Origin: Chryseotalea sanaruensis
GTDB taxonomy: Bacteria > Bacteroidota > Bacteroidia > Cytophagales > Cyclobacteriaceae
Direction: 5' to 3'
DNA: 64,000 nucleotides
NCBI RefSeq assembly: GCF_003990915.1
Contig: NZ_BHXQ01000003.1
Span: 248,001-312,000 of the forward strand
Below, piece after piece: positions 27,991-41,080 of the stretch. Below the pieces are notes generated by a model, which saw nothing but the letters and a program-made list of their open reading frames with translations, did no database searches and was not told where the DNA came from. Position numbers and translations under genes: made by a program. The first letter of the stretch is position 1; every line of letters begins with the position of its first letter.

Positions 27991-30831
27991 ATGAAATACC
28001 TATTCATCCTCTTATTTCCCGTTTGTGTGGTTGCACAAAGTCCGCTGCAAGGTTTAAAAAAAGCAGCCCTGGATAAAGCCAAAGGACTTGCCAGTAAAGA
28101 AAACCTGAACAAGGCTACTACCCTGTTGCTTAATGACCTCGATAAAACAAGGGCACAATTCGACTCAACAGACTTCGATTATTCTATCATTGTCACAGAC
28201 AACTCGGGGCTATTCGATGTAAAGGAAAAAGGTGAAAGAAATGCCAAGCTGATTACCAGCGCCAATCTTTATAATAAGTTCATGCAAAATGATGAGCTTA
28301 CTGAAATTGAAAAAGCACGAGCCCATCTGGAGTTCGGTGAAATCTTCTATGCACAAAATAAATACACTACGGCTGAAAACCGATTTACCTCAGCGCGTGA
28401 ATTATTTGAAAGCGGAAGCGGCACAGATGATATTGGATATCTGAAAACCATTGCCAATCAGGGTTTGCTATATGCTACCATGGGGCGCTTCACTCAGGCT
28501 GAAACTTATACTGCTGAAGCTTTAGATTTGCGTAAAACCAAACTTGGTGAAACCAACGCAGGTGTAGCAGCTTCTTATAACAACTATGCTGTACTGCGTT
28601 ATAATTTGGGTAAATACAATGAAGCAGAAAAAGATATAGAACAAGCATTGGCCATTTTAACGCAAAACAATTTAAAAGATGCCATGCAATATGCCATTGC
28701 GCTTAACAACCTGGCCATGCTTAAACAAACCATCGGGCGCTTTGATGATGCCATCAAAGATCTGAAAGAAGTGTTGAGCATTTCTGAAAAATTACAAAGC
28801 AGCAAATCTAAAAACCATTTGAAGTTTGTTTCAAATCTCGCACTACTCTACCAACAAACAGGCAAATACCCAGAGGCAGAAGCACTTTATCTAAGTGCGC
28901 AAAGTAGAATCAGCAAGACCAGTCCAGACTATGCAGCGCTCCTGAATAATTTGGCATTGTTATATCGTGCAATGGGGCAAGATGAAAAAGTTGAAGACCC
29001 ATTGGTAAAGGCATTGGCCATTTATAAAAGTAATGTAGGCGATGAAAGTCCGGTATATGCCAAAACACTTAACGACTTAGGAAACTTCTACAGAAGTAAA
29101 GAGCGCTATGCAGAGGCAGAACCACTTTTAACTAAGGCTTTAAGTATTCGTGAAAAAGCATTGGGTACAACGCATCCCTTATATGCCCAGTCGCAGGAGG
29201 ACCTGGCTATACACTATTGGAAAAAAGGCGAAATTGATAAAGCCTATACTTTGTATAAAGTGGTGATGGATCAATCGCTTGAGTTTATTAATCAATACTT
29301 TCCACCCATGAGCGAAGCGGAAAAAACCAAGTATTGGGATGTGCTTTCACCGCGTTTTCAACGTTTCTACAATTTTGCCAATGCATCTGCAGCCACCAAC
29401 AAAGAAGTGGTGAAAGATTTATACGATTACCATATCGCTACTAAAGCACTTTTACTAAGTTCCACCAATAAAATTAAGCAGAGTATTATTGCCAGTAAAG
29501 ATGCAGTGCTAATAACAGACTATTTCAAATGGCTCGATCAAAAAGAAACGCTGGCCCGTTATTATGCTTATACAAAAGAAGAACTGAAAGAGCAGAAAAT
29601 TAACCTCGACTCCACCGAGCGTGCAGCCAATACGTTGGAGAAGAGAATTTCTGAACGTTCTAAAGATTTTTCAGCAGGGTTTAGCAACCAAAAAATTACC
29701 CATGCTCAATTAAGTACTCTACTAAACGATCAAGAGGCCATTGTAGAAATTGTACGTGTGCGTATTTACAACCAAAGCTTTACCGATCAGGTTGCCTACC
29801 TGGCACTTGTGTTAACCAGGGGAGCAAAGGAACCCGTTTTAATTACACTTAATAATGGGAATCAACTCGAAACGCGTTATGCTAAATACTACCGAAACAC
29901 TATTCAACAAAAGCAGCCAGACAATGTCTCCTACGAACAATACTGGAGTAAAATAGAACCGGCATTGGCCGGTAAGAAAATTCTGTACTTGTCGTTAGAT
30001 GGCGCTTACAACCAACTGAATCTAAACACACTTAAGAAAGCTGATGGTGATTATTTAGTTAAGAAGTACGAGATGATCTTGTTGGGTAATTCCAAAGACC
30101 TGATCGCGATTAAAAGTCGTAAAGCAAGTACACCTAAAAAGAATGCCTTCCTGATTGGCTTCCCCGACTATGGCGGTCCGGAACTAACAAGCTTACCAGG
30201 AACCAAAACAGAACTCGATGGCATCAATAAAATGCTGAAGTTAAATGGCTACCAGGTTATACAGTTTACGCAAAAGGAAGCAAGCGAGAAAAACTTAAAA
30301 AACATCAAAGCACCGGAATTACTACACATTGCCACGCATGGTTATTTCTTGCAAGATGTAGAAGGTAAAGACGATGCCTATGGCATTAGTGCTGAAAATG
30401 CATTAGAGAATCCACTGCTGCGTTCAGGTTTGATGCTGGCCGGTGCCAGTAAAACAGTAAGCGGTGCAAGTGCACCTAGTTTGGAAAGTAACGACAATGG
30501 AGTGCTTACTGCCTACGAGGCCATGAACTTGAATTTAGAAGGCACACAATTAATAATCTTGAGTGCCTGCGAAACAGGTTTAGGCGATGTTAAGAATGGC
30601 GAGGGCGTTTACGGTTTACAACGTGCTTTTTTAGTGGCCGGTGCGGACGCCTTGATTATGAGCTTGTGGAAAGTAGATGATGCCGCAACCCAACTGCTGA
30701 TGACTAACTTCTACACAAACTGGATAAAGCTACGTGATAAACAAAAAGCATTTAAGCAGGCACAACTACAGCTCATGACTAAATACAAAGAACCATATTA
30801 TTGGGGTGCTTTTATTATGATTGGTAACTAA
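27991..30831 (+). CDS. Exported TPR-CHAT protein
   Basis: About 946 residues. A signal peptide (MKYLFILLFPVCVVAQ) is followed by at least seven tetratricopeptide-type repeats (residues about 95-440, for example YNNYAVLRYNLGKYNEAEKD and LLYRAMGQDEKVEDPL), a helical linker, and a C-terminal CHAT (caspase HetF-associated with TPR) domain. The presumed His is in LLHIATHGYF near residue 782 and the Cys in LSACETGLGD near residue 860, so the clan CD peptidase dyad is intact. I chose the ATG at 27991; another at 27979 adds four residues. Substrate unknown. The next gene's frame overlaps its end, and the two may be co-transcribed. Confidence 0.92.
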   Translation: MKYLFILLFPVCVVAQSPLQGLKKAALDKAKGLASKENLNKATTLLLNDLDKTRAQFDSTDFDYSIIVTDNSGLFDVKEKGERNAKLITSANLYNKFMQNDELTEIEKARAHLEFGEIFYAQNKYTTAENRFTSARELFESGSGTDDIGYLKTIANQGLLYATMGRFTQAETYTAEALDLRKTKLGETNAGVAASYNNYAVLRYNLGKYNEAEKDIEQALAILTQNNLKDAMQYAIALNNLAMLKQTIGRFDDAIKDLKEVLSISEKLQSSKSKNHLKFVSNLALLYQQTGKYPEAEALYLSAQSRISKTSPDYAALLNNLALLYRAMGQDEKVEDPLVKALAIYKSNVGDESPVYAKTLNDLGNFYRSKERYAEAEPLLTKALSIREKALGTTHPLYAQSQEDLAIHYWKKGEIDKAYTLYKVVMDQSLEFINQYFPPMSEAEKTKYWDVLSPRFQRFYNFANASAATNKEVVKDLYDYHIATKALLLSSTNKIKQSIIASKDAVLITDYFKWLDQKETLARYYAYTKEELKEQKINLDSTERAANTLEKRISERSKDFSAGFSNQKITHAQLSTLLNDQEAIVEIVRVRIYNQSFTDQVAYLALVLTRGAKEPVLITLNNGNQLETRYAKYYRNTIQQKQPDNVSYEQYWSKIEPALAGKKILYLSLDGAYNQLNLNTLKKADGDYLVKKYEMILLGNSKDLIAIKSRKASTPKKNAFLIGFPDYGGPELTSLPGTKTELDGINKMLKLNGYQVIQFTQKEASEKNLKNIKAPELLHIATHGYFLQDVEGKDDAYGISAENALENPLLRSGLMLAGASKTVSGASAPSLESNDNGVLTAYEAMNLNLEGTQLIILSACETGLGDVKNGEGVYGLQRAFLVAGADALIMSLWKVDDAATQLLMTNFYTNWIKLRDKQKAFKQAQLQLMTKYKEPYYWGAFIMIGN

Positions 30832-30862
30832 ACAGAAATGGTTGCAACAGTCTCGTGTATTC

Positions 30863-31411
30863 ATGAATAATAAAGTCCAGCATTACCGTAACAGACTAGG
30901 CCTCACGCAATCTGAACTTGCACAGAAGTCTGGTTTATCGCTAAGAACAATACAACGCATCGAAGCCGGGTTGGAGCCCAAAGGTTTTACGCTAAAAAGT
31001 ATTACTAAGGCATTGGAGATAGAAAGCACTGATCTATTGGAAGAGCACACTACTGATACCAGTGTTGATATTGCACAAGCGAAACTGATAAACATTGCGT
31101 CATTGGCCTATTGGGTATTGCCTTTCGGAAACATTATTGTGCCATCAATCCTGATCTACAAACAATCTGGCAGCGATACGCGGAAAATCGGATTGAACAT
31201 GTTGAGTATCCAAATACTCTGGACGCTTTTAACGTCAGCCTTGCTTTTGCTTAGTCCGGCTATACAAGTCAGGCTTGCAACAACTGTCCCCATTATTTTC
31301 GTGGTTCTCTTTTCTATGTTTTGCTTAAATGCTTTCATCATCATATTAAATGCCATCGAGTTGAACAGAAGCGGCAAACCTTACATACTGCTGAAATACA
31401 GCTTGTTGTGA
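30863..31411 (+). CDS. XRE-type HTH protein with membrane domain
   Basis: 182 residues. An N-terminal lambda-repressor-like HTH (VQHYRNRLGLTQSELAQKSG then LSLRTIQRIEAGLEPKGFT) is followed by about four hydrophobic segments (residues about 85-180). This HTH plus DUF4870-like membrane-tail layout is frequent in Bacteroidota and suggests a membrane-tethered regulator. The ATG at 30863 puts it 31 bases after the TPR-CHAT stop; an upstream TTG would overlap that gene but is less likely. No catalytic or ligand motif is visible. Confidence 0.8.
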   Translation: MNNKVQHYRNRLGLTQSELAQKSGLSLRTIQRIEAGLEPKGFTLKSITKALEIESTDLLEEHTTDTSVDIAQAKLINIASLAYWVLPFGNIIVPSILIYKQSGSDTRKIGLNMLSIQILWTLLTSALLLLSPAIQVRLATTVPIIFVVLFSMFCLNAFIIILNAIELNRSGKPYILLKYSLL

Positions 31412-31494
31412 ATCTGGCGTAAAACTGGCGCTTAATTGACGCAACGGTTTTGCTCTCAAAACAATTTCTTTTGATGAGCATTGCCAAAAAAAGT

Positions 31495-32448
31495 ATGAAA
31501 ATCATCAAAAGGATCTTAATTGCTGTGGCAGGCCTTATTGTGCTGTCACTATTCGGAGGGTATTTCTATTTCGAGAAGAAGTTTACACCCAAAATCAATA
31601 ACCTCACAGTAGAGAATAGTAGTGGTTACATTCCCATTTTTTGGGAGCGTAGTCAGGATAGTGATATGTCAGCCTTGCTTTTACCTGTTAAAATTAAGGG
31701 CGTAAACATTCCTTTGTATATGCAGTTGGACTGTGGTTCGCCTAATACAATATTTTATTCCCGAGCAATGGAGTCCCTTATGCTAAACTTTCCAGCATCA
31801 ATTCAACCAGCAGATAGTCTACACCACATATCATTATCCTATACACTAGGCAATTTAATTATTTCATCCAATCAGTTTGCTATGATAGAATATGGTCAAG
31901 CCATAAATGCAGACACTCCTGATTCTATACACATTATTGGAACTATTGGTACTGATCTGATGGAAAAGCGAATCACCATACTGGATTTCAAAAACAATAA
32001 TTGTGCGTTCACAACTGCCATGCCTGATGGTATTGAAGAAGCAGAACTTCAACAGTTTACGTTCAAAAAAAGAAGAATTATGTTACCTGGAAAAATCGAT
32101 CAGGAAGAAATGTCATTTCTTTTTGATACAGGAACCAGTGCATACTCACTGATTACCAGTCAGAATCTTTTTGAAAAATATTCAACTAAAAACGGTAATG
32201 AAGTTTTAAGCACTGGCAATTCGTGGGGCAATACATTAACTGTTCATACTAAGGAGTCAAATAAAGTAATTGACTTTGGCTCTACCATCACACCAATAGC
32301 AAACGTTACTTTTATTGAAGGAACTTCATTCTTGCAAAATTTACTCATGCGATTTTCCGAAATGGATGGAATGATTGGTAACAAACTTTTCAAAGACAAA
32401 GTAGTTGTGTTGAATTGTGCGCATGAGAAATTTGCCATTATTGAATAA
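31495..32448 (+). CDS. Membrane-anchored aspartic-protease-like protein
   Basis: About 317 residues. A basic N-terminus and one transmembrane segment (RILIAVAGLIVLSLFGGYFY) anchor a periplasmic domain. Two aspartyl-protease-type motifs occur, LQLDCGSPNT-like (read as MQLDCGSPNTIFYS, near residue 80) and FLFDTGTSAYSLIT (near residue 210), so it looks like a two-lobed pepsin-type arrangement rather than a single retropepsin lobe. In the first motif Cys replaces the usual Thr after Asp. I chose the ATG at 31495; in-frame ATG 31474 and TTG 31450 exist. Activity is unproven. Confidence 0.65.
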   Translation: MKIIKRILIAVAGLIVLSLFGGYFYFEKKFTPKINNLTVENSSGYIPIFWERSQDSDMSALLLPVKIKGVNIPLYMQLDCGSPNTIFYSRAMESLMLNFPASIQPADSLHHISLSYTLGNLIISSNQFAMIEYGQAINADTPDSIHIIGTIGTDLMEKRITILDFKNNNCAFTTAMPDGIEEAELQQFTFKKRRIMLPGKIDQEEMSFLFDTGTSAYSLITSQNLFEKYSTKNGNEVLSTGNSWGNTLTVHTKESNKVIDFGSTITPIANVTFIEGTSFLQNLLMRFSEMDGMIGNKLFKDKVVVLNCAHEKFAIIE

Positions 32449-32490
32449 TTTACAATAGTAGCGCCAATTTCTAAAAATCATTTCTCACTC

Positions 32491-32528
32491 AAGTCTCTGG
32501 TATATCTGGTATTATACCAGAGACTTTT
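32491..32528. terminator. Bidirectional intrinsic terminator
   Basis: A perfect 14-bp stem (AAGTCTCTGGTATA at 32491-32504 with its complement at 32513-32526), an 8-base loop and trailing T residues on the plus strand. It lies between the convergent aspartic-protease-like gene and the ABC permease gene and could end both transcripts. Confidence 0.85.
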
Positions 32529-32548
32529 AACATTCAGTGATTCATTAA

Positions 32549-33652
32549 TTACTCAATCTTCGGCTGATAACGGTAGTAGTAATGATGAAAAGAGAAAAAT
32601 GAAATACTTACTAAACAAACCGCCAATGGCACAATCAGCTTGCTAAGAACCATCATAAAACAAAAAATAAACAGCACCATTATAAAATGAATCAGATAGT
32701 CCGGATTTCGGTTGCTTTTATAAAGGTATGTATGGAAACATAGTAGAAAGCAAGACGATAATAGAGCCAGCAATGGCAGTTGAAAGAGATTAATACCTCG
32801 CCCAAGTGTACCTACCAACAAGATTACTTCCGGTATAAAAAGAATAGTATAAAGTAAAAAGTACGATGAATAGGTTCTAAACCTTGATATTGGCAGGTTC
32901 CTTGTCCATGTAAGTTTCAGATCTTCATATGATTTCAGTTTAATCGCAATAAAAGTATGTGAAAGTACAGCAAAGAGCCATGCAAGAGCGATAATACGAA
33001 AGTCATCTCCTTCCACTAATGTTTCTTTTACTACATAAATCAAAGCGATGGAGAAAAACTTACTCAATGCAATAGCCATCTTCTCTTTGTGCAATAGATA
33101 ATTCCAATAAATGCCCGACAGTCCTTTTAAAAATGTAAAAGAGAAAACCGGAAGCTTGATAAAGGGAGGAATATGCTTTCTATGAAAAAATGAAGTTAAA
33201 CTGTAGGCAGTGATTGCAAGAAGACAAATTTGAAATGAAAAAATAGTCAGACACTGCCAATAAAATCCATTTACAAGTGCAATAGAAAAAATGGCAATGC
33301 TATAAAGAAATACCGGCAAAAACGTGAGGGAACATAAGATAAAGAAGTATAGGAAGTTTTTTGTTTTTGATAATAGGGCCAGTTCATTCAATATCTGGTA
33401 ATCATTTTGATTAAGGAGTTTTAGGAAAAATAATAATACTTTTACTTGATACAGCAGCCATAATGCCAATACTACTAGTAAAAATATTGTGGATGTGAGC
33501 ACACCATAGATCAGGGATTGGTGATAATACACTACCTGCGATGATTCGACCACCCCGAACATGATAAAAAATACAAAAAAGAAAATGCCAGCATGGCTTT
33601 TATAAAAAGGAGTTGCCAGACTCCTGATCAATAGATGCAACACCATATTCAT
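32549..33652 (-). CDS. ABC-type exporter membrane subunit (putative)
   Basis: 367 residues with about ten hydrophobic segments and no signature I can assign to a named family. Its start overlaps the stop of the preceding ABC ATPase gene by four bases (ATGA type), which makes it the membrane partner of that ATPase. Such ATPase plus unclassified permease pairs occur across Bacteroidota; the substrate is unknown. The bidirectional terminator at 32491-32528 follows it. Confidence 0.7.
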   Translation of the reverse strand: MNMVLHLLIRSLATPFYKSHAGIFFFVFFIMFGVVESSQVVYYHQSLIYGVLTSTIFLLVVLALWLLYQVKVLLFFLKLLNQNDYQILNELALLSKTKNFLYFFILCSLTFLPVFLYSIAIFSIALVNGFYWQCLTIFSFQICLLAITAYSLTSFFHRKHIPPFIKLPVFSFTFLKGLSGIYWNYLLHKEKMAIALSKFFSIALIYVVKETLVEGDDFRIIALAWLFAVLSHTFIAIKLKSYEDLKLTWTRNLPISRFRTYSSYFLLYTILFIPEVILLVGTLGRGINLFQLPLLALLSSCFLLCFHTYLYKSNRNPDYLIHFIMVLFIFCFMMVLSKLIVPLAVCLVSISFFSFHHYYYRYQPKIE

Positions 33653-34281
33653 AGCAATGTAAAATTTGCGCTGTGGTTTTCAATTTTTAAAACACCTTTA
33701 CAGACAAAATGAGTCTCCGGCAATTGTTGATGCGAACTGATGATGAAGGATACACCAGCCTCGCACCGTTGACTAATTAAAGAAAGCAGTTTCGGCATAA
33801 ACTCATCATCTATGGTTATTAATGGTTCATCAAGCAGAATCAGCTTCATATCACCAATGAAAGTCATTAGCAAAGAAAGTTTTTTTAGCATACCGCTTGA
33901 ATAAGTTCCCACCGGATACTTGATAAAGTCAGCGATGTCAAGGTGAGCCAGTAAATCGTCCACTTGTTGATTAGAAGCTTGTCGTGTCTGCTGTACAAAG
34001 CGGATCAATTCAGTTCCTGTTAAAAATTCTGGAAACAGCGGTTCAGCTTCGGCATAAGAAACCAACTTTCGATAGGCAATGGGTTTGCTCTTTAAGTTTA
34101 CGCTATCGACACTAACTTCACCATCAAAGGGATTAATTCCGGCTATGATTTTCATCAAAGTGGTTTTACCTGACCCATTACCACCTTTCAACCAATGAAT
34201 ACCTTCAGGTATTTCAAGATGAGCAAAGTTTAGAATGGTTCTTGAACTATAATCTTTTTTAATATGACTAAGAATAATCAT
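33649..34281 (-). CDS. ABC transporter ATP-binding protein
   Basis: 210 residues, cytoplasmic ATPase. Walker A is LKGGNGSGKTTLMKI near residue 37, the signature motif is YSSGMLKKLSLL, Walker B is LILLDEPLITID and the switch His is in FIISSHQQ. The family is that of CcmA/antibiotic-exporter type single-domain ATPases. ATG at 34281; a TTG one codon earlier is possible. It is co-translated with the permease-like gene downstream. Confidence 0.92.
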   Translation of the reverse strand: MIILSHIKKDYSSRTILNFAHLEIPEGIHWLKGGNGSGKTTLMKIIAGINPFDGEVSVDSVNLKSKPIAYRKLVSYAEAEPLFPEFLTGTELIRFVQQTRQASNQQVDDLLAHLDIADFIKYPVGTYSSGMLKKLSLLMTFIGDMKLILLDEPLITIDDEFMPKLLSLISQRCEAGVSFIISSHQQLPETHFVCKGVLKIENHSANFTLL

Positions 34282-34406
34282 CAACTTATCGTATTTCCTA
34301 AAAATACTAAAAGATAGCTGTTCGTATAGTTAAGCAGGCAGCGCACAAAAGTGTAATGGATGTATTCAACCATTCGTTTTGGAAGGCATATCTAGGTTTA
34401 AGGCAA

Positions 34407-34438
34407 TAAAAAAAGCCTCATCGGACAGATGAGGCTTT
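34407..34438 (-). terminator. Intrinsic terminator of tRNA-Leu
   Basis: On the minus strand AAAGCCTCATC and GATGAGGCTTT form an 11-bp stem with a 5-base loop, followed by a run of T residues. It begins 2 bases after the tRNA 3' end. Confidence 0.9.
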
Positions 34439-34439
34439 G

Positions 34440-34521
34440 TGCCCAGGACTGGACTCGAACCAGCACACCTTACGGAACCACCCCCTCAAAGTGGCGTGTC
34501 TACCAATTTCACCACCTGGGC
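34440..34521 (-). tRNA. tRNA-Leu (anticodon GAG)
   Basis: 82 nucleotides on the minus strand. The acceptor arm GCCCAGG pairs with CCTGGGC, discriminator base A. The anticodon stem CCACT/GGTGG encloses the loop TTGAGGG, giving anticodon GAG. A long variable arm (GTTCCGTAAGGTGT region) and the T arm CTGGTTCGAGTCCAG complete a class II leucine tRNA. The CCA end is not encoded. Its first 13 bases also encode the last residues and stop codon of the GIY-YIG protein upstream. Confidence 0.95.
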
Positions 34522-34760
34522 AATGTTTTTAAATTTTTCAAAAACTCCTTTCCTATCCCACTTTTCAAATATATCTCACGCTTCCTAGCTTCTACTCTTG
34601 TTGGAAAACTTTCTACAAAAACTACATCGAATGGTCGATAAGCTTTCGTTGTCCTATTTTGGCCAGTATTATGTTCTCCCACCCTCCTATCAACATCGTT
34701 TGTTAACCCTACATAAATGTAAGCCCGCGACAAACTCTTTAATGCATAAACAAAAAACAT
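34509..34760 (-). CDS. GIY-YIG endonuclease-like protein fused into tRNA-Leu
   Basis: 83 residues, a complete single-domain GIY-YIG protein: VYALKS for GIY, YIYVGLT for YIG, then the conserved Arg in DRRVGEHNTGQN and the metal-binding Glu in RVEARKREIYLKSG. I chose the ATG at 34760; a TTG two codons earlier is also open. The last codons (LPRW and the TGA stop) are read from the first 13 bases of tRNA-Leu. The protein resembles single-domain UvrC-N-like nucleases that are common beside RNA genes in Bacteroidota. A second, broken copy of the tRNA 5' half flanks its other end. Confidence 0.9.
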   Translation of the reverse strand: MFFVYALKSLSRAYIYVGLTNDVDRRVGEHNTGQNRTTKAYRPFDVVFVESFPTRVEARKREIYLKSGIGKEFLKNLKTLPRW

Positions 34761-34802
34761 ATGCAAAAGATATATATTCTGTTTATCAAATCACATTCCC
34801 CT

Positions 34803-34866
34803 ACCCCCTCAAAGTGGCGTGTCTACCAATCCTGCCTGCCGGCAGGCAGGTTCACCCCTGGGCAAA
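34803..34866 (-). pseudogene. tRNA-Leu 5'-half remnant, interrupted by a palindrome
   Basis: 34803-34830 is identical to 28 bases of the intact tRNA-Leu (34480-34507), covering D arm to anticodon stem. After a 20-base insertion, 34851-34866 continues as the D-arm/acceptor 5' sequence with one base deleted. The similarity stops at the 3' side of the anticodon stem, so only the 5' half of a former tRNA-Leu gene is left. Confidence 0.85.
34831..34850. repeat. 20-bp perfect palindrome inserted in the tRNA remnant
   Basis: CCTGCCTGCCGGCAGGCAGG is its own reverse complement. It is inserted cleanly between two bases that are adjacent in the intact tRNA, with no target duplication. It resembles a dispersed REP-like palindrome; a half copy (GGCAGG) adjoins the second remnant at 34911-34916. 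Confidence 0.85.
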
Positions 34867-34910
34867 TACAATTCAAAACAAACTCTTCTAAAATCAAGTA
34901 TCAGCAAAAA

Positions 34911-34930
34911 GGCAGGTTCACCACCTGAGT
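34911..34930 (-). pseudogene. Second, shorter tRNA-Leu remnant
   Basis: GGCAGG, the second half of the palindrome, is followed by TTCACCACCTG (34917-34927), the acceptor/D-arm 5' end of tRNA-Leu. It keeps the A that remnant 1 lost. It suggests an earlier rearrangement at the same place. Confidence 0.55.
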
Positions 34931-35059
34931 CTATGCTAAAACTCCATTTTAGCGGGTCGCAAATGTAAAAAGCTTTACAGAGATAAACAATTACTTAACT
35001 CAGGATAAACTTTTCTTAATATCACTTGACTTTATGAAAAAGATATCCATACCTTAGTG

Positions 35060-35140
35060 TTCCGCATTTAGGAGCCCATCTAAATTTTCCTAATTGCTGC
35101 ACAACGAGTGTAAAAGCTGTCTCAGGCGGAGGCAGCTTTT
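35060..35140 (+). ncRNA. Candidate small RNA ending in a strong terminator
   Basis: Between the tRNA remnants and the Rrf2 gene a terminator-type hairpin (35112-35140, AAAAGCTGTCTC with GAGGCAGCTTTT) ends in a T-rich run, although no plus-strand gene precedes it. A second stem TTAGGA/TCCTAA lies upstream at about 35066-35094. A TTGAC at about 35028 and TACCTTAG near 35051 could be promoter elements. Together they outline a possible 80-base transcript. No family is recognised; the terminator is firm, the RNA is inferred. Confidence 0.35.
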
Positions 35141-35210
35141 ATAATTTACGGCCCTCCCCAGAATCCTTCAAAACTTTTACTATTCTAAGCTAAAGCCTAT
35201 CTTGCCAAGC

Positions 35211-35642
35211 ATGCTTTCTAAAAAATGTAAATACGCCATTCACGCATTGATATACCTGGCTGAGCGCTACGAGCAAGGTCCAGTACATATTCAAGAGATT
35301 TCCGAGAAACAAAAAATACCCAAGAAGTTCCTCGAAGCCATTTTACTTGAACTTCGCAACGCCAAAATTCTACAAAGTAAGAAGGGTAAAGGTGGTGGTT
35401 ACTACCTCTACAAAAAGCCTGAAGATGTTAATATGATCGATATCATCCGCCACATGGATGGAGCCATTGCTATGTTGTCGTGCGTTTCGCTAAACTATTA
35501 CGAACGCTGTGATGAGTGTCAGAATGAACCCACTTGTGGTATACGAGATGCGTTTATCCAAGTGCGTGACCAAACCCTTAAGGTACTCGAGAAAAGTACA
35601 CTGGCACACATTCTCAAAAGACAAAAACAGCTTGGTATCTGA
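35211..35642 (+). CDS. Rrf2-family transcriptional regulator
   Basis: 143 residues, cytoplasmic. Winged HTH from the N-terminus (KCKYAIHALIYLAERYEQGP, then IPKKFLEAILLELRNAKIL and the wing SKKGKGGGYYL). The C-terminal part has clustered cysteines (CVSLNYYERCDECQNEPTC), as in members that bind an iron-sulfur cluster or sense cysteine metabolism. The ATG at 35211 is preferred to a TTG three codons earlier. In Bacteroidota close relatives often control sulfate or cysteine genes, but none lies here. Confidence 0.92.
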   Translation: MLSKKCKYAIHALIYLAERYEQGPVHIQEISEKQKIPKKFLEAILLELRNAKILQSKKGKGGGYYLYKKPEDVNMIDIIRHMDGAIAMLSCVSLNYYERCDECQNEPTCGIRDAFIQVRDQTLKVLEKSTLAHILKRQKQLGI

Positions 35643-35736
35643 GTCCAAACCATAAAAGTAAATCACCGTCCGTCAAGGGCTGTTTTTATTATCCGATTCT
35701 AGTTCTATCTTGCGCGGCTTTAGCAAAATAGATTAC

Positions 35737-36240
35737 ATGGCATTTCTTGAAAAGAAGTTATTGGTAAAAAAGTCAACCCTGCCCGGAGCCGGTAAAGGCT
35801 TGTTTACGACTGTAGACATCCCAAAAGGTAAACGCATTGTCGAATACAAAGGTACAAGAACAACCTGGACTGAGGTAGAGGATGATGACGGAAAAAACGG
35901 CTACATTTTTTACATCACCAGAAACAATGTGATTGATGCCCTACCCCATAAAGAAGCACTAGGCCGTTATGCCAATGACGCACGTGGCATGTCTAAGGTA
36001 GATGGCATTCGTAACAATGCAGAATATATCATCAGCAAGGGACGTTGCTACATCGATGCCATGAAGGACATTGAAGCAGGTTCTGAGATTTTGGTGAGCT
36101 ATAGCGCTGATTACTGGAAAACCATTAAAGACAATATCAAGCTTGAAGAGAGAAAGACAAAAAACAAGAAAGTCAAAAGCAAGAAAGTCAAGAGTGAAAA
36201 GAAGAATACTGGCAAAAAATCTTCGAAGAAGAAAAAATAG
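35737..36240 (+). CDS. SET-domain protein with lysine-rich tail
   Basis: About 167 residues. A SET domain (putative protein-lysine methyltransferase) covers residues 5-130: LPGAGKGLFTTVDIPKGKRI near the N-terminus, RYANDA for the RFxNH-type motif, then NNAEYI and ILVSYSADYW, where E-I-L-V-S-Y-S corresponds to the GEELxxDY end motif. The last 40 residues are nearly half lysine. The ATG at 35737 is preferred; an upstream TTG adds nine residues. Cytoplasmic; substrate unknown. The basic tail could bind nucleic acid or be a self-methylation substrate, which is inference. Confidence 0.88.
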   Translation: MAFLEKKLLVKKSTLPGAGKGLFTTVDIPKGKRIVEYKGTRTTWTEVEDDDGKNGYIFYITRNNVIDALPHKEALGRYANDARGMSKVDGIRNNAEYIISKGRCYIDAMKDIEAGSEILVSYSADYWKTIKDNIKLEERKTKNKKVKSKKVKSEKKNTGKKSSKKKK

Positions 36241-36335
36241 TTTGAGGATAGAGCAAATTTAATCCATAGGTTGCTCACTAATTTTTTTCAGCTCATTACT
36301 TATTAAAATCAAAAAGCCATCAGAAAGCATCAGAT

Positions 36336-37943
36336 CTACTCCTCTGTCTGCATATTTTCTACCATTTCCTTTTTTGCTAAAATCTTTTGAAGTGCAATAA
36401 CAACACCATTAGTCCATCCGAAACCATCTTGCAGTGGGTATTCGCCTCCTCCAGCAAAAAGCATAGTGTCCATTACATTATATTTCTCCATCATTTTACC
36501 AGTGGCTTTATAAACGTCTATGTTACGATTGAGCCATCTTTCAGCAGCCGCATTGCCCTCTTTTCCATAACCATAATTATACAATCCATTTATGGTGATC
36601 CACTGCAGGGGAGCCCATCCGTTGGGTGAATCCCATTGTTCACCTGTTTCATTTAGAGTAGTAACGAATCCTCCGGGTTTTAAAAAATCTGATAATAACC
36701 TCGCTACCACCGATTTTGCTTGGGCTTTAGATGAGAGGCTGAAGAATAAAGGATATGCTCCTGCCAATGATAAAACCCCAGTGGGTTGGAGCATTTTATA
36801 GTCATAGTCTACATAATAATTCTCGTGTTTATCCCACAGATATTTATCAATGGCATATTTTCTTTCTCCTGCTTTGCAAAGGTAGTATTCCGATTTTTGT
36901 AGATCATCAACCCAATTATACCCTTGGGCAATTTTCAACTCCAGGTGGTACAACAATGCGTTCAAATCAATTGGTACAATATCTGTAGTATGAATGGTCT
37001 CAAGAGATTTATGATCTTTAAACCATCTGCTACTATAGTCCCAGCCCGATTCGGCTCCGGCTCGTAAGTGCCTATAAGTACTAGATGGGTCCAAATTATT
37101 ATTGTTCACTAACTCATAATCCTGTTTAAATGATTCAGGTCTGGGGAAGTCATAGTTATCCCAATACCTGTTTAAAACCTCGCCATCCGCCATACGAACC
37201 ACCATATTAAATGTAGGAGATTCAGCATTTAGGGAATCTGCTCCATGCATCCAAAAGTTATATTCACGAACCAACCTTGGCAAATACTGATTATAAAGAT
37301 CTCTTTGGTCGGACGCCACCAAATCTACCATTAGGGAGAAGAAAGGCGGTTGAGACCTCCCTACATAATAATTTCTATTCCCATTGGGAATAAAGCCAAG
37401 GGAGTCGATCAGAAATGAAAAATTATCAACCATATTTATCGCCATTTCACGCTGGGAAGACTCCATCAATCCTTCCATGGTAAAGTAGCTGTCCCAGTAA
37501 TAAATTTCGCGAAATCGGCCTCCAGGCACAATGTAAGGCTTAGGAAGAGGCATTAATGAAGACCGTGGATCATACTCATCAGGTTGCCTTGTCAGCACAG
37601 GCCAAAGAGACATGATATGCTGAAATACATTTTTGGTGGCATCTGTGTTAAAACCTGTAGCCGGAGTCACCGGCAGCTCAAAGTGTTCGGCTACAAAATC
37701 TTCAAGGCTAAAGCCAGTCTGATCTTTTTTTTGGTGATAGAGTTGGAGGATAGTGGTGAGCTTACGCTTAGGTATACAGTCCACAAACGTTTTTGAATCT
37801 GGATAAATACCCGAAAGCTGCACCTCTTTAAAAATAGCTGATGCATAAAAATTAAAATTTGAATTATTTTCTCCAGAAGGTTGGCTACAGGTTGAAAATA
37901 CAACCAAAGCAATGATTAATATATTTGAGGTTTTAAACTTCAT
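36336..37943 (-). CDS. treA: GH37 trehalase, lipoprotein
   Basis: 535 residues. The N-terminal signal ends in a lipobox-like VVFSTCSQ, so it is probably lipid-anchored in the periplasm. Both GH37 signatures are present: PGGRFREIYYWDSYF near residue 140 and QWDSPNGWAPLQW near residue 435. The general acid Asp is expected in GAESGWDYSSRW and the base Glu in GGGEYPLQDGFGW. It hydrolyses trehalose to two glucose. Monocistronic by spacing on both sides; no trehalose transporter or phosphorylase is adjacent. Assignment is firm. Confidence 0.95.
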   Translation of the reverse strand: MKFKTSNILIIALVVFSTCSQPSGENNSNFNFYASAIFKEVQLSGIYPDSKTFVDCIPKRKLTTILQLYHQKKDQTGFSLEDFVAEHFELPVTPATGFNTDATKNVFQHIMSLWPVLTRQPDEYDPRSSLMPLPKPYIVPGGRFREIYYWDSYFTMEGLMESSQREMAINMVDNFSFLIDSLGFIPNGNRNYYVGRSQPPFFSLMVDLVASDQRDLYNQYLPRLVREYNFWMHGADSLNAESPTFNMVVRMADGEVLNRYWDNYDFPRPESFKQDYELVNNNNLDPSSTYRHLRAGAESGWDYSSRWFKDHKSLETIHTTDIVPIDLNALLYHLELKIAQGYNWVDDLQKSEYYLCKAGERKYAIDKYLWDKHENYYVDYDYKMLQPTGVLSLAGAYPLFFSLSSKAQAKSVVARLLSDFLKPGGFVTTLNETGEQWDSPNGWAPLQWITINGLYNYGYGKEGNAAAERWLNRNIDVYKATGKMMEKYNVMDTMLFAGGGEYPLQDGFGWTNGVVIALQKILAKKEMVENMQTEE

Positions 37944-38137
37944 CTTGATCTTTTCTAAATTAATAGAGACTTATTCTTATTTACCAGCTGCTGCTCACAC
38001 TCTATCCAAAATATTTTTGATCCCAACTTTCCTAAACTGAGGGTCCAGTTAATGTCCTAAGTAAATTGAAATTTAGAACGATTTACCACATCTAGCAGCT
38101 CACAACCAAACCCACCTATTCAGTAAACCTTAATATT

Positions 38138-41080
38138 TTATTTCAACATCAACCGCTGAAGCGATATTCTCGCATCGGCTGCATAATCATCGTAACCCAG
38201 TCTGAGTGCTTCGCCTATATAAGCTTTCCATAAACGAACAGAAGATTTATTCACCTGAACTGCCTCCGAAAGAATAGCATAGGCTTCTCCATTGTCCTTC
38301 GAAAATTTCCGCGCATATTCTGCAGCTGTAATCACACCTTCTTCAAAGAAAGGATTGGCATGTGCTAATTGTGCAAATGCTTTATCTGCCAAAGCTTTCT
38401 CTCCACCTGCATCATTCAGTAAACCTTCGTAATACATTTTATCTAATTTACGGTTCAATGAGAAGGTAACATCACTCAATTGCGTTGCTAATGCATCCAA
38501 TTCGCCAAGAGATGCCAACACCCTTAGTTGTGTAAACTGTCTGAAGGTTCTAACCGCAGGACTATTAACGCTAAGGCTAAGCGCCTCTTGTATATAACGC
38601 TGCGCTGTAGCAGGTCTGTCTGCTTCAAGTTGTCGTACTGCCATCTCTGTAAGGCTTTGCGCTTTGTAATTTGCCTCCTCCATGCTATTGACCAACACAG
38701 TAAGCATGGTAGTATCTCTGGTACTTAATCTGTAGCGACTGTATTGGTATTTGATGGCGTCAGTACTTTTGATGGCCTCCTGTAAATTCATGCTTAACAC
38801 TTGTGTTATGGTATTCGCCAGACTTCTCTCACCTTCATCCGCAGCACTCAGCAATTTTTCCCATAAGATGAGGGCATCACCCAGGTTACCACTTTCTGTT
38901 TCGGCTATAGCCATATAGAATTGGGCATCTTTATAATTATAATTGAAGGCATAACGGAAAGCGAGTGCTGCCGCCTCAGGATCTCCTTGCTCCAATAACC
39001 ACAAGCCAATCACAAAATTGTATTTCCCTTGATTGGAGGCACTCACAAATGATAACTCACTCATCAGTTGTAAAGCCCTTGCTACATTGCCCTGTAAGTA
39101 ATGCGCATGTGCCAAGGCTACTTTTAAGGCTTCAGCATAATCTAAGTTTACACTATCTCGCGCCAGCACCTCAGCTTTATCAAGTTCTGTAGCTGTGATG
39201 GTTAATGATTTGGCCAAAATAAAGTTGTGGAGTAAGGTTGCCTCATGCAAGGTTAAGACTCCCTCTTTCATAACATTTATTTCCTTGTTTAAAGGCATGC
39301 GTGTTATAGCAGACAGCCCCAACAAATTTGCATTCACACCTTTATTTTCAGTTTTAAAAAGTGATGCGAGCGAATCTGGTGAAATTGGTAGGAGCTCTGT
39401 TGCAACTATACCGGTAAAATTAGTTTCAGCTGCATTCTTTGTTTTTGCATAATTGCGTGAGGCGCCCAATAAAAAGAAGGAAGAATCCAACTCATGTATT
39501 TTACCTTTAAAAAGTCCTAAATTATTGGTCAGGTAAGGATCATCAGGCAACTGCTTCAATGCATCCTTTAGGCTGAAAATGGATTTAAAATTATTCTCTT
39601 CCCAATTATATACATTGGCATCATTGGCCAAGGCATAAGCAGAAGGGCGTTTTAAATTGGCGCGTGTATAGTAATCATGACTTTGTTGCCACTGAAACTC
39701 ACCTGAATAATAATAACCTTTAGCATAATTAGCATGATGGTTGGCATAACCATAGGTTCTACCTTGTTCATAATAGAGTTGCGCCACATCCTCCTCTCCT
39801 ATGGCTACATATAAATCTGCCATGGAAGTCCAAAATCCTGAAAAAGAATTATTCACATAACTTTTCCAGTCATTGTAGATCATTAAACTCACCACTACAA
39901 TAATACCTCCTAGTCTGAAAGTTTCGTAAGGCATTCTATTGGGCCTGTACAAAACTTTCCACGCGGATAAATCCCGATCAATAAGTTTTAAAAAGTTTGA
40001 AAAAACGTATAAAAGCAAAATCAAACCAAAACCCAGGTGACAAAATACAAGGATGTCTCGTAACGCTTCCAGTGGTGCATCATTGGAGGTTCCAAATAAA
40101 AAAGCAAAAGTGATGAGCGCAATACTTGCCATCGCCAGGTAGAAGTAAGCACCGAAGGGATAAAAAGGCATTAGTCCCTGATACAAAACTTCTCTGTGCT
40201 TCCAGCCCCAAAAACCAATGAATACGGTAACACTAAAGATTAAATAAATATCCAGGTAAAGAATATTCCATGTAATGAAACCCTGATCATTACCGTAAAT
40301 CAAGACAAGGTTTAACAAATAAATAATAGTGATGACTAAAAAATGTTTGAGGCCTGTTGATGCTTGCGCTTGTGTAGTAAGGTATAAGAAACCTGCAGGC
40401 ACTTCATGCGCCACCATTACAATGAAAATCACTGTAAGCACCATTGCCGGTACATATGCCGTTACACTCAAATACATGAATGGCAGTTTTACACCGGCCA
40501 TGAAATAAATTACAATGGACACCAATAATGTAATCAATGCAAAAATTAGTAGTCTGAACTGGAATGTTGCTGTTTTATTAAAGGCATTGAAATAAAAACT
40601 GGGCAGCAGAAAGACAGCAATGGTACCTATTGTAAACCAACTGTTACCTAAACCTGCTACTTGCAACACATCTAACCTAAGGCTTACTAAAAAAAGAATT
40701 ACTAAACCACTGGCAATAAAGTACCAGAATTTTTCGAGCGCAGAAAAAATGGTAACCAGGTAAACAAAAGCTATGGTCAATACTAATACAAATACATATG
40801 AAATGTAAAGATTAGGCTGAAGCTTACCTCCCTGAAAAAATTCAAAAAGTAAATACACATTTACAGGAACAGTAATTTCGAAAGGACCCAACTGAAATTC
40901 GTGGATACTGGTTTCTACAATTTTCTGTTCTTGGAAATTTTCCCAACCGATTACGCTGTCAACACCTTTGAAATAATAAAATGCAAAAAACACGAATGAG
41001 ATAACCATTAGAGTCATCAACAAATAGGTATGTTGCTTATAGGATGTATTCCAGGTTTTCCAAAACCAAAGCTTATTCAT
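38138..41080 (-). CDS. Large membrane protein with C-terminal TPR-like repeats
   Basis: 980 residues. The first 420 hold about eleven hydrophobic segments. The rest is soluble and helical with tetratricopeptide-type repeats, for example EDVAQLYYEQGRTYGYANHH, LALAHAHYLQGNVARALQLM and AALAFRYAFNYNYKDAQFYM. No catalytic motif is visible and I do not recognise a named family. Such proteins occur in Bacteroidota as single genes of unknown role, with the repeats probably a protein-binding platform at the membrane. It is separated from the gatC gene upstream by 66 bases containing that gene's terminator. Confidence 0.8.
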   Translation of the reverse strand: MNKLWFWKTWNTSYKQHTYLLMTLMVISFVFFAFYYFKGVDSVIGWENFQEQKIVETSIHEFQLGPFEITVPVNVYLLFEFFQGGKLQPNLYISYVFVLVLTIAFVYLVTIFSALEKFWYFIASGLVILFLVSLRLDVLQVAGLGNSWFTIGTIAVFLLPSFYFNAFNKTATFQFRLLIFALITLLVSIVIYFMAGVKLPFMYLSVTAYVPAMVLTVIFIVMVAHEVPAGFLYLTTQAQASTGLKHFLVITIIYLLNLVLIYGNDQGFITWNILYLDIYLIFSVTVFIGFWGWKHREVLYQGLMPFYPFGAYFYLAMASIALITFAFLFGTSNDAPLEALRDILVFCHLGFGLILLLYVFSNFLKLIDRDLSAWKVLYRPNRMPYETFRLGGIIVVVSLMIYNDWKSYVNNSFSGFWTSMADLYVAIGEEDVAQLYYEQGRTYGYANHHANYAKGYYYSGEFQWQQSHDYYTRANLKRPSAYALANDANVYNWEENNFKSIFSLKDALKQLPDDPYLTNNLGLFKGKIHELDSSFFLLGASRNYAKTKNAAETNFTGIVATELLPISPDSLASLFKTENKGVNANLLGLSAITRMPLNKEINVMKEGVLTLHEATLLHNFILAKSLTITATELDKAEVLARDSVNLDYAEALKVALAHAHYLQGNVARALQLMSELSFVSASNQGKYNFVIGLWLLEQGDPEAAALAFRYAFNYNYKDAQFYMAIAETESGNLGDALILWEKLLSAADEGERSLANTITQVLSMNLQEAIKSTDAIKYQYSRYRLSTRDTTMLTVLVNSMEEANYKAQSLTEMAVRQLEADRPATAQRYIQEALSLSVNSPAVRTFRQFTQLRVLASLGELDALATQLSDVTFSLNRKLDKMYYEGLLNDAGGEKALADKAFAQLAHANPFFEEGVITAAEYARKFSKDNGEAYAILSEAVQVNKSSVRLWKAYIGEALRLGYDDYAADARISLQRLMLK

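What the first reader, a model, noticed from the sequence alone, without database searches (positions are those of the whole stretch)
34440..34866. GIY-YIG gene fused into tRNA-Leu, with the displaced 5' half of the old tRNA left behind
The GIY-YIG gene's last codons and stop lie in the first 13 bases of intact tRNA-Leu(GAG). On the far side, 28 bases identical to the tRNA from D arm to anticodon stem, plus the acceptor start, remain as a remnant whose match ends within the 3' side of the anticodon stem. The simplest reading is a roughly 320-base element that inserted at the anticodon arm, supplied a new 5' half, and left the old half upstream. That is how tRNA-targeting elements preserve their host gene, but with a single nuclease gene and no integrase.
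Basis: partly seen in the sequence, partly recalled or inferred. Interest (0 to 1): 0.78.

Follow-up and report, generated by a model that had tools for sequence, protein, structure and literature searches.

The report
tRNA-gene-dwelling nuclease elements with palindromes
In Bacteroidota and many other bacterial phyla, a tiny GIY-YIG nuclease gene typically sits beside an intact tRNA gene, on the same strand, with a broken tRNA copy (often carrying an inserted palindrome) on its other side, and it likely spreads by cutting tRNA genes and being copied in during repair, which would make it one of the smallest mobile elements able to live in essential genes without killing the host.

Summary
In the window an 83-aa GIY-YIG gene ends inside tRNA-Leu(GAG); upstream lies a displaced copy of tRNA positions 1-42 with a 20-nt palindrome in its D-loop. 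Three of four same-genus genomes have the empty site. Relatives of the protein are tRNA-linked: 90 of 113 loci from the same order have a tRNA/tmRNA within 300 nt, against 0 of 15 other GIY-YIG loci from the same search; 69 of 77 GTDB-wide loci have a tRNA within 150 nt. All 200 GIY-tRNA pairs are on one strand. Either GIY precedes the tRNA and a 5' tRNA copy lies upstream, or GIY follows it and a 3' copy lies downstream. Nuclease clade predicts tRNA isotype and palindrome type. I read it as a tRNA-gene homing-type element related in style to phage SegB and fungal mobile ORFs, with a host-derived duplication and a clade-specific palindrome that neither is known for. Cutting and mobility are inferred, not shown.

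The parts
34439..34521 (-). Intact tRNA-Leu(GAG)
   Evidence: ARAGORN, Rfam RF00005 49.1 bits at 34440-34521
34509..34760 (-). GIY-YIG nuclease gene, 83 aa from ATG (TTG start possible at 34766); last codons and TGA stop inside the tRNA
   Evidence: ORF, PF01541 58.2 bits; in a 25-sequence alignment Y6, Y17, G19, R27, H31, E63 are invariant
34803..34830 (-). Displaced tRNA copy, positions 15-42, identical to the intact tRNA
   Evidence: 28/28 direct repeat
34831..34850 (.). Palindrome CCTGCCTGCCGGCAGGCAGG inserted in the D-loop of the displaced copy
   Evidence: Sequence, alignment; only exact copy in the genome
34851..34863 (-). Displaced tRNA copy, positions 1-14 with one base missing
   Evidence: Alignment; occupies the place of the native tRNA 5' end of the empty sites
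34910..34927 (-). Older fragment: tRNA positions 4-14 plus the first 7 nt of the palindrome, a likely trace of an earlier round
   Evidence: Sequence; 13-nt repeat D2
34960..34990 (-). Promoter-like TTG-N20-TACATTTG upstream of remnant, GIY and tRNA; likely the native tRNA promoter
   Evidence: The TAnnTTTG part is kept at the same place in G001, G003 and G004; the Bacteroidota promoter consensus is recalled, not from a call

Best explanation
This is a one-gene mobile element that likely spreads by cutting tRNA genes with its GIY-YIG nuclease, so that repair would leave the nuclease gene between one intact tRNA gene and one broken copy. Shown: the occupied and empty sites, the intact tRNA, the broken copy at the native flank, the fixed co-orientation, the host origin of the duplicated tRNA segment, the palindromes in the broken copies and their tie to the nuclease clade, the tandem arrays, and purifying selection on the nuclease. 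Inferred: the nuclease cuts or nicks the target tRNA gene in a loop (D-loop, anticodon loop or T-loop, where the palindromes sit); recombination or gap repair duplicates the host tRNA segment around the incoming gene; the palindrome ends up at the cut site of the displaced copy and would stop it being cut again or recombining the element out; the gene is read from the tRNA's own promoter; renewed cutting of the intact copy would produce the tandem arrays.
For: Empty site against occupied site at two tRNA genes of this genus: tRNA-Leu(GAG) and tRNA-Pro(AGG), where G002 and G004 are empty, G003 has a decayed relic and the own genome has an array. tRNA link: 90 of 113 type I loci within 300 nt against 0 of 15 type II/III loci of the same search; 69 of 77 GTDB-wide loci within 150 nt. 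Co-orientation 200 of 200 pairs after removing one duplicate. Remnant on the predicted side: of 169 significant remnants, A reaches the tRNA 3' end in 77 of 90, B the 5' end in 75 of 79. Isotype follows the protein tree: 38 changes, lowest of 200 shuffles 102. Window-type palindrome within 2 mismatches in 53 of 91 Leu, Arg-B and Lys loci and 0 of 107 others. Host-derived copy. dN/dS median 0.09 in 11 pairs. Precedent: the GIY-YIG homing endonuclease SegB cuts inside phage tRNA genes and drives tandem amplification by recombination; its motif RAWTSGAAC is the reverse complement of the T-loop GTTCSAWTY (PMC13096335, sections 9 and 10), and 15 of 26 T-loop palindromes here lie right after GGTTC.
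Against: No cleavage or transfer was measured. The intact tRNA stays cuttable in this model, so some control of self-cutting must exist and is unknown. The protein is little more than the catalytic domain, so how it would pick one isotype is unclear. Palindromes also occur away from GIY genes, once in a genome with no GIY match (G008), and the genome encodes Y1 transposases that could move them. 23 of 113 type I loci have no RNA gene within 300 nt; 11 of these have a clear tRNA fragment (E < 1e-4) and 9 have none at E <= 0.01. 26 of 195 pairs show no significant remnant, and 74 of 136 insertions do not fold better than all their shuffles. The scan of viral contigs found no relative.
Confidence: 0.6

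Rival explanations
1. Carried-half model: the element brings its own tRNA half, as tRNA-targeting integrative elements and fungal mobile ORFs do, and the native half is displaced.
For: Displaced copy at the native flank and regenerated intact tRNA; fungal mobile ORFs do this with protein genes (PMC3630166, passages).
Against: Remnant and intact copy agree with each other and with the host, even where nearly related nucleases sit in different phyla; acceptor stems of occupied tRNAs pair as well as controls (182 of 198 perfect, controls 70 of 85).
Confidence: 0.1
2. Plain tandem duplication: an ordinary GIY-YIG gene beside a tRNA is duplicated with part of the tRNA and kept for tRNA dosage or repair, with no mobility.
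For: Arrays of 2 to 6 units in 51 of 265 loci, a sample biased towards arrays; host-derived copies; amplification needs only a break and recombination in the SegB case (PMC13096335).
Against: Presence/absence within a genus; one Leu-linked clade found in several phyla; at least 15 isotypes; broken copies do not raise tRNA dosage; single-unit loci are the majority (214 of 265).
Confidence: 0.15
3. The palindromes are independent REP-like repeats moved by Y1 (RAYT-type) transposases into hairpin loops; the GIY gene has nothing to do with them.
For: The own genome has four Y1_Tnp matches; palindromes also lie in other hairpin repeats; G008 has the palindrome but no GIY match.
Against: The window's palindrome lies beyond GIY in 53 of 91 Leu, Arg-B and Lys loci and 0 of 107 other loci, and in 5 of 199 stretches on the other side of the tRNA; an independent repeat would not follow the nuclease clade.
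Confidence: 0.12
4. Assembly or binning artefact.
For: Many genomes are MAGs; the own tRNA-Pro array breaks at a contig end.
Against: The same structures stand in genomes with the contig count given as 1 (G375, G431, G328, G365, G310, G096) and in many genomes from different sources.
Confidence: 0.01

Closest known systems
SegB, free-standing GIY-YIG homing endonuclease of T-even phages (PMC13096335, sections 9 and 10 and passages; PMC2988022, passages)
   Same: GIY-YIG nuclease gene among tRNA genes; cuts inside tRNA genes; causes tandem tRNA-plus-nuclease arrays; the paper notes microhomology between the segB 3' end and a tRNA 5' end, and segB-tRNA co-localisation across phages.
   Different: Here the genes are in cellular genomes of many phyla, have little beyond the catalytic domain, sit next to a displaced tRNA copy, are tied to one isotype per clade (the SegB paper reports no isotype preference), and go with clade-specific palindromes. 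Cutting has not been shown.
Mobile ORF elements of fungal mitochondria with carboxy-terminal duplication (Allomyces atp6, Glomus atp6/atp9/cox2/nad3; PMC3630166, passages)
   Same: A nuclease gene lies between a regenerated gene end and the displaced native end.
   Different: Target is a tRNA gene; the duplicated part is host-derived, not foreign; palindrome in the displaced copy.
tRNA-targeting integrative elements with tyrosine recombinases (recalled)
   Same: tRNA gene as target, gene kept intact, remnant at the far end.
   Different: No integrase at the window locus; about 0.4 kb; a 5' copy can be the one displaced; no carried tRNA end.
REP/RAYT palindromes (recalled)
   Same: Short palindromes tied to a small nuclease.
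   Different: Palindrome type goes with GIY-YIG clades here; Y1 transposases are present in the genome but not at the locus.
UPF0213 proteins (1zg2, 1ywl) and SLX1 structure-specific nucleases
   Same: Closest solved sequences of the catalytic domain.
   Different: No tRNA link known to me; the type II relatives in the same genomes have none (0 of 12).

Membership tests
Free-standing GIY-YIG homing endonuclease (SegB-like) | GIY-YIG catalytic domain with active-site residues | tested here: met
   PF01541 58.2 bits; Y6, Y17, G19, R27, H31, E63 invariant in 25 sequences
Free-standing GIY-YIG homing endonuclease (SegB-like) | Not inside an intron or intein | tested here: met
   No Rfam intron match in window 30000-40000; the tRNA is intact
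Free-standing GIY-YIG homing endonuclease (SegB-like) | Alleles without the gene exist | tested here: met
   Empty sites in G001, G003, G004 and, for the tRNA-Pro element, G002 and G004
Free-standing GIY-YIG homing endonuclease (SegB-like) | Cuts its target DNA and is preferentially inherited | not testable with these tools
   Needs protein and crosses
Free-standing GIY-YIG homing endonuclease (SegB-like) | Separate DNA-binding domain for target choice (as in I-TevI; recalled) | tested here: not met
   83 aa; the Pfam match covers residues 3-69 of the 85-aa reading. Not filed as a SegB family member; it works like one
Fungal mobile ORF with replaced gene end | Nuclease gene between regenerated and displaced gene ends | tested here: met
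Fungal mobile ORF with replaced gene end | Inserted gene end is foreign | tested here: not met
   Copy is host-like: 96% to own tRNA against 69% to others
tRNA-targeting integrative element | Integrase gene | tested here: not met
   Between the ABC transporter and Rrf2 genes no ORF of 50 aa or more other than GIY-YIG is a recognisable gene; the rest are overlapping frames
Group I intron with homing nuclease in a tRNA | Intron interrupts the functional tRNA | tested here: not met
   tRNA uninterrupted; no Rfam group I match in window 30000-40000
REP/RAYT system | Palindromes tied to a Y1 transposase | tested here: inconclusive
   Four Y1 matches in the genome, the nearest on contig C3 about 5.5 kb from a one-mismatch palindrome copy; palindrome type follows the GIY clade

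The most novel reading that the evidence does not exclude
A new kind of minimal mobile system: an 80-90 aa nuclease plus its own palindrome that recognises the hairpin arms of one tRNA isotype, duplicates the host tRNA around itself so that the essential gene survives, and writes its clade's palindrome into the dead copy at the cut loop as a mark of occupied DNA. In effect it would be a natural home-and-rescue drive on essential RNA genes, shared by Bacteroidota, Patescibacteria, Omnitrophota, Ignavibacteriota and Nitrospirota.
Probability: 0.3. Interest if true: 0.93.

Novelty: new variant of a known kind. Interest (0 to 1): 0.85.

Why it matters
tRNA genes are classic insertion targets, but the known users carry integrases, introns or phage context. 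A single-gene element that leaves the essential gene intact, is tuned to one isotype and keeps that tuning across phyla is a testable case of how the smallest mobile elements live in essential genes. It would explain many small GIY-YIG genes and tRNA-like relics in genome annotations, and the palindrome link offers a handle on how short palindromes spread. The next experiment is simple: does the protein cut the tRNA gene and spare the palindrome-bearing copy?

Tried and rejected
NCBIfam has no model hit. For 40 loci without an ARAGORN tRNA I tried Rfam: two tmRNA and one tRNA; the rest stay unexplained apart from fragments. Raw pairwise identity of the 20-nt insertions among class-B Leu loci (0.75) hardly exceeded that of tRNA positions 1-13 (0.73); some are out of register and one is another insertion, so I used best-match counts instead. 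I considered that the GIY-tRNA overlap is universal and rejected it: the stop codon lies in or touches the tRNA in 37 of 90 class-B cases. Counts of arrays (51 of 265 loci) are biased upward, because 40 phylum regions were chosen by hand from the printed matches with arrays and complete genomes favoured. The type II motif was chosen after seeing the sequences; a few loci left in type I (L106, L112, L125, L129) look like type II, and they count against the tRNA link. The first mismatched-pair control (median 8.5, 95% at 15.5, maximum 78.5) is contaminated by arrays and neighbouring tRNAs; one search uses shuffled flanks. Late check: L279 is the same contig stretch as L018; I give and 53 counts without it, while counts still hold it. 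The presence of the exact palindrome only in genomes with GIY matches (23 of 23 in the phylum set) looked like a link, but G008 breaks it and in some genomes the remnant itself is the copy, so I do not use it.

Full report
WHAT IS IN THE WINDOW. On the minus strand the order is: promoter-like sequence (34990-34960), an old fragment (34927-34910), a displaced tRNA copy (34863-34803) interrupted by a 20-nt palindrome (34850-34831), a GIY-YIG gene (34760-34509) and the intact tRNA-Leu(GAG) (34521-34439). The displaced copy is tRNA 1-14 (one base lost), palindrome CCTGCCTGCCGGCAGGCAGG, then tRNA 15-42 exactly. The old fragment is tRNA 4-14 followed by the first 7 nt of the same palindrome, so at least two rounds seem to have happened here (inference).

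EMPTY SITE. G004, G003 and G001 (same genus) have the tRNA, the neighbouring Rrf2 gene and 268-290 bases between the two matches, against 695 in the window genome (coordinates). The alignment shows their upstream flank running directly into tRNA position 1, with no GIY gene and no remnant. In the window that flank leads into the remnants. The fourth relative, G002, has no close tRNA-Leu(GAG) match.

A SECOND ELEMENT IN THE SAME GENOME. At the end of contig C3 a tRNA-Pro(AGG) is followed by a terminator-like hairpin, a GIY gene, a tRNA-Pro copy whose anticodon arm is replaced by a TCCCGACAGAGTCGGGA hairpin, the same terminator and a second GIY gene, unit 383 nt; a further 5' fragment with the same hairpin lies upstream. 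Contig C8 begins with the end of the same GIY gene and a last broken tRNA, followed by different flank DNA; that C3 and C8 are the two ends of one array is inferred. G002 and G004 have tRNA-Ala and tRNA-Pro with no GIY; G003 has a decayed GIY relic there. Here GIY follows the tRNA and the broken copy is downstream: the mirror image of the window.

SURVEY. A search with the window protein found matches in 87 of 146 relatives; the match list was cut, and I took every printed match. Of 128 loci with a hit of 20 bits or more, 113 are the window's kind (type I), 12 have a W..L-type C-terminus (type II) and 3 are long proteins. Type I: 78 with a tRNA or tmRNA within 120 nt, 90 within 300 nt; of the other 23, 14 have a tRNA fragment within 400 nt at E <= 0.01, 11 of them at E < 1e-4. 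Types II and III: 0 of 15 with an RNA gene within 300 nt; 4 of 15 with a 13-nt match near E 1e-3 and 0 below 1e-4. In a phylum-wide search 200 of 296 genomes match a profile of the family; of 60 distinct loci taken from it (30 given by the tool, the rest picked by hand), 51 have a tRNA within 150 nt. GTDB-wide, 69 of 77 loci do, in Bacteroidota, Ignavibacteriota, Chlorobiota, Nitrospirota, Omnitrophota, Saganbacteria and many Patescibacteria lineages. UvrC-like and epsilon-like long GIY matches of the own genome (L004, L005) have no tRNA in their loci.

GEOMETRY. After removing duplicates there are 200 GIY-tRNA pairs within 150 nt: 110 with GIY after the tRNA (A), 90 with GIY before it (B), none on opposite strands. 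On the far side of GIY a tRNA copy scores above shuffled flanks in 169 of 195; in A it reaches the tRNA 3' end in 77 of 90 (5' end in 8), in B the 5' end in 75 of 79 (3' end in 3). In B the stop codon lies in or touches the tRNA in 37 of 90; 14 use a TAG at tRNA 21-23 and 9 the TAG at 8-10. The window's overlap is thus common, not universal. Sixteen isotype labels occur (the one 'SeC' call, L061, is an ARAGORN call on a Met-like sequence), and two loci sit by tmRNA. Arrays of two to six units occur in 51 of 265 loci, spacing median 359 nt (biased upward).

PALINDROMES. Of 169 remnants 120 have an insertion of 10 nt or more. Of 136 insertions up to 60 nt, 80% lie in the D-loop, anticodon-loop or T-loop regions (46% expected from the aligned spans), 62 fold better than all of 100 shuffles, and 41 are 20-mers within four mismatches of the window's palindrome. 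In others the palindrome replaces the anticodon arm. The window's palindrome within two mismatches lies on the far side of GIY in 35 of 46 Leu-B, 8 of 22 Leu-A, 9 of 22 Arg-B and the one Lys locus (whose protein is in the Leu clade), and in 0 of the other 107, Arg-A included; on the other side of the tRNA it is found in 5 of 199, and in shuffled far flanks in 0 of 198. It also occurs elsewhere in genomes: four one-mismatch copies in the own genome inside a repeated hairpin, and 23 of 292 phylum genomes have an exact copy. Of eight such copies whose surroundings I looked at, one lies by a tRNA fragment. G008 has a copy but no GIY match. The palindrome is therefore tied to the nuclease clade but not confined to the element.

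SPECIFICITY AND DESCENT. On a tree of 181 proteins (79 columns, weakly resolved at depth) isotype needs 38 changes, lowest of 200 shuffles 102; side (A/B) 29 against 48; palindrome type (116 rows) 26 against 42. Shuffles ignore relatedness of hosts, but the Leu clade (62 rows, support 100/97; 61 Leu and one Lys) mixes Bacteroidota, Patescibacteria, Ignavibacteriota and Omnitrophota, so target choice stays while hosts change. dN/dS in 11 related pairs is 0.06-0.23, median 0.09: the protein is used.

WHERE THE EXTRA tRNA PIECE COMES FROM. In 35 class-B Leu loci the remnant's first 13 nt match their own tRNA at 96% and other loci's at 69%. Among four Leu elements with proteins about 73-80% identical in the pairs measured, the acceptor stems differ from host to host, yet remnant and intact gene agree within each host. 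Acceptor stems of occupied tRNAs pair perfectly in 182 of 198, controls 70 of 85; three class-A tRNAs have two mismatches. In L264 the native terminator is duplicated with the tRNA, in L290 about 30 nt of leader with a few mismatches. So the duplicated segment is host DNA. A carried half would give chimaeric tRNAs after a jump between phyla.

MECHANISM. Committed reading: a homing-type element. The nuclease likely cuts the tRNA gene in a loop; repair inserts the gene and duplicates host tRNA sequence; one copy stays intact and the other, at the native flank, is left with a palindrome at the probable cut site. Support from outside: SegB cuts inside tRNA genes with a preferred motif RAWTSGAAC, and its activity with phage recombination makes tandem repeats of tRNA plus segB (PMC13096335, sections 9 and 10 read). 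The reverse complement, GTTCSAWTY, is the T-loop; 15 of 26 T-loop palindromes here lie right after GGTTC. What remains open: how host DNA is duplicated (staggered nicks or recombination), what puts the palindrome there, and why the intact tRNA is not destroyed. Possible reasons for the last are low expression, because the gene is read through the tRNA unit, and, where the ORF ends inside the tRNA, removal of the stop codon by RNase P; both are untested.

LITERATURE. Searches in the held library showed no description of chromosomal GIY-YIG genes with displaced half-tRNAs in the titles and abstract starts that they listed; only free-licence papers are held and most lists were cut. The GIY-YIG survey PMC1564403, searched for tRNA, COG2827, UPF0213, YhbQ, Bacteroid and palindrom, mentions tRNA only in another context. 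PMC4162613 (passages) reports truncated atp6 copies in fungal mtDNA. PMC10293859 (passages) reports a GIY-YIG gene in Tsy transposons, a different system. PMC3630166 (passages) describes the mobile ORFs. PMC2988022 (passages) lists SegB's place between tRNA genes.

Noticed in passing
window 35060-35148: A block of about 90 nt between the tRNA locus and the Rrf2 gene, ending in a terminator-like hairpin, is nearly identical in four species of the genus while its surroundings diverge; no Rfam match. Possibly an unknown small RNA.
   Followed up: partly
L008, L009, L010, L011 (own genome, contigs C2, C3, C4, C5): A repeated hairpin unit of about 150 nt in four copies, each with a one-mismatch copy of the window's palindrome near its hairpin loop.
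   Followed up: partly
G152 contig C2, 1200428-1232703: Eight of the twelve exact copies of the palindrome in this genome lie within about 32 kb; reason unknown.
   Followed up: no
L015 1480-1523 (own genome, contig C16): A fragment joining what looks like a tRNA-Met 3' part to the 3' end of the tRNA-Leu (24 nt, 96%), with no intact tRNA called there.
   Followed up: no
L113 and L136: GIY-YIG genes 217 and 135 nt downstream of tmRNA genes on the same strand; remnants there were not examined.
   Followed up: no
L339 and L345: The window's palindrome sits inside sequences that I recall as common dispersed hairpin repeats; it may enter hairpin loops generally.
   Followed up: no
L247: A tRNA-Ser(GGA) stands between two near-identical GIY genes, with partial copies of it on both outer sides.
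   Followed up: no
L018 and L279: The G063 contig stretch is identical to a record titled Cyclobacteriaceae bacterium, so the window's family is probably Cyclobacteriaceae (inference).
   Followed up: no
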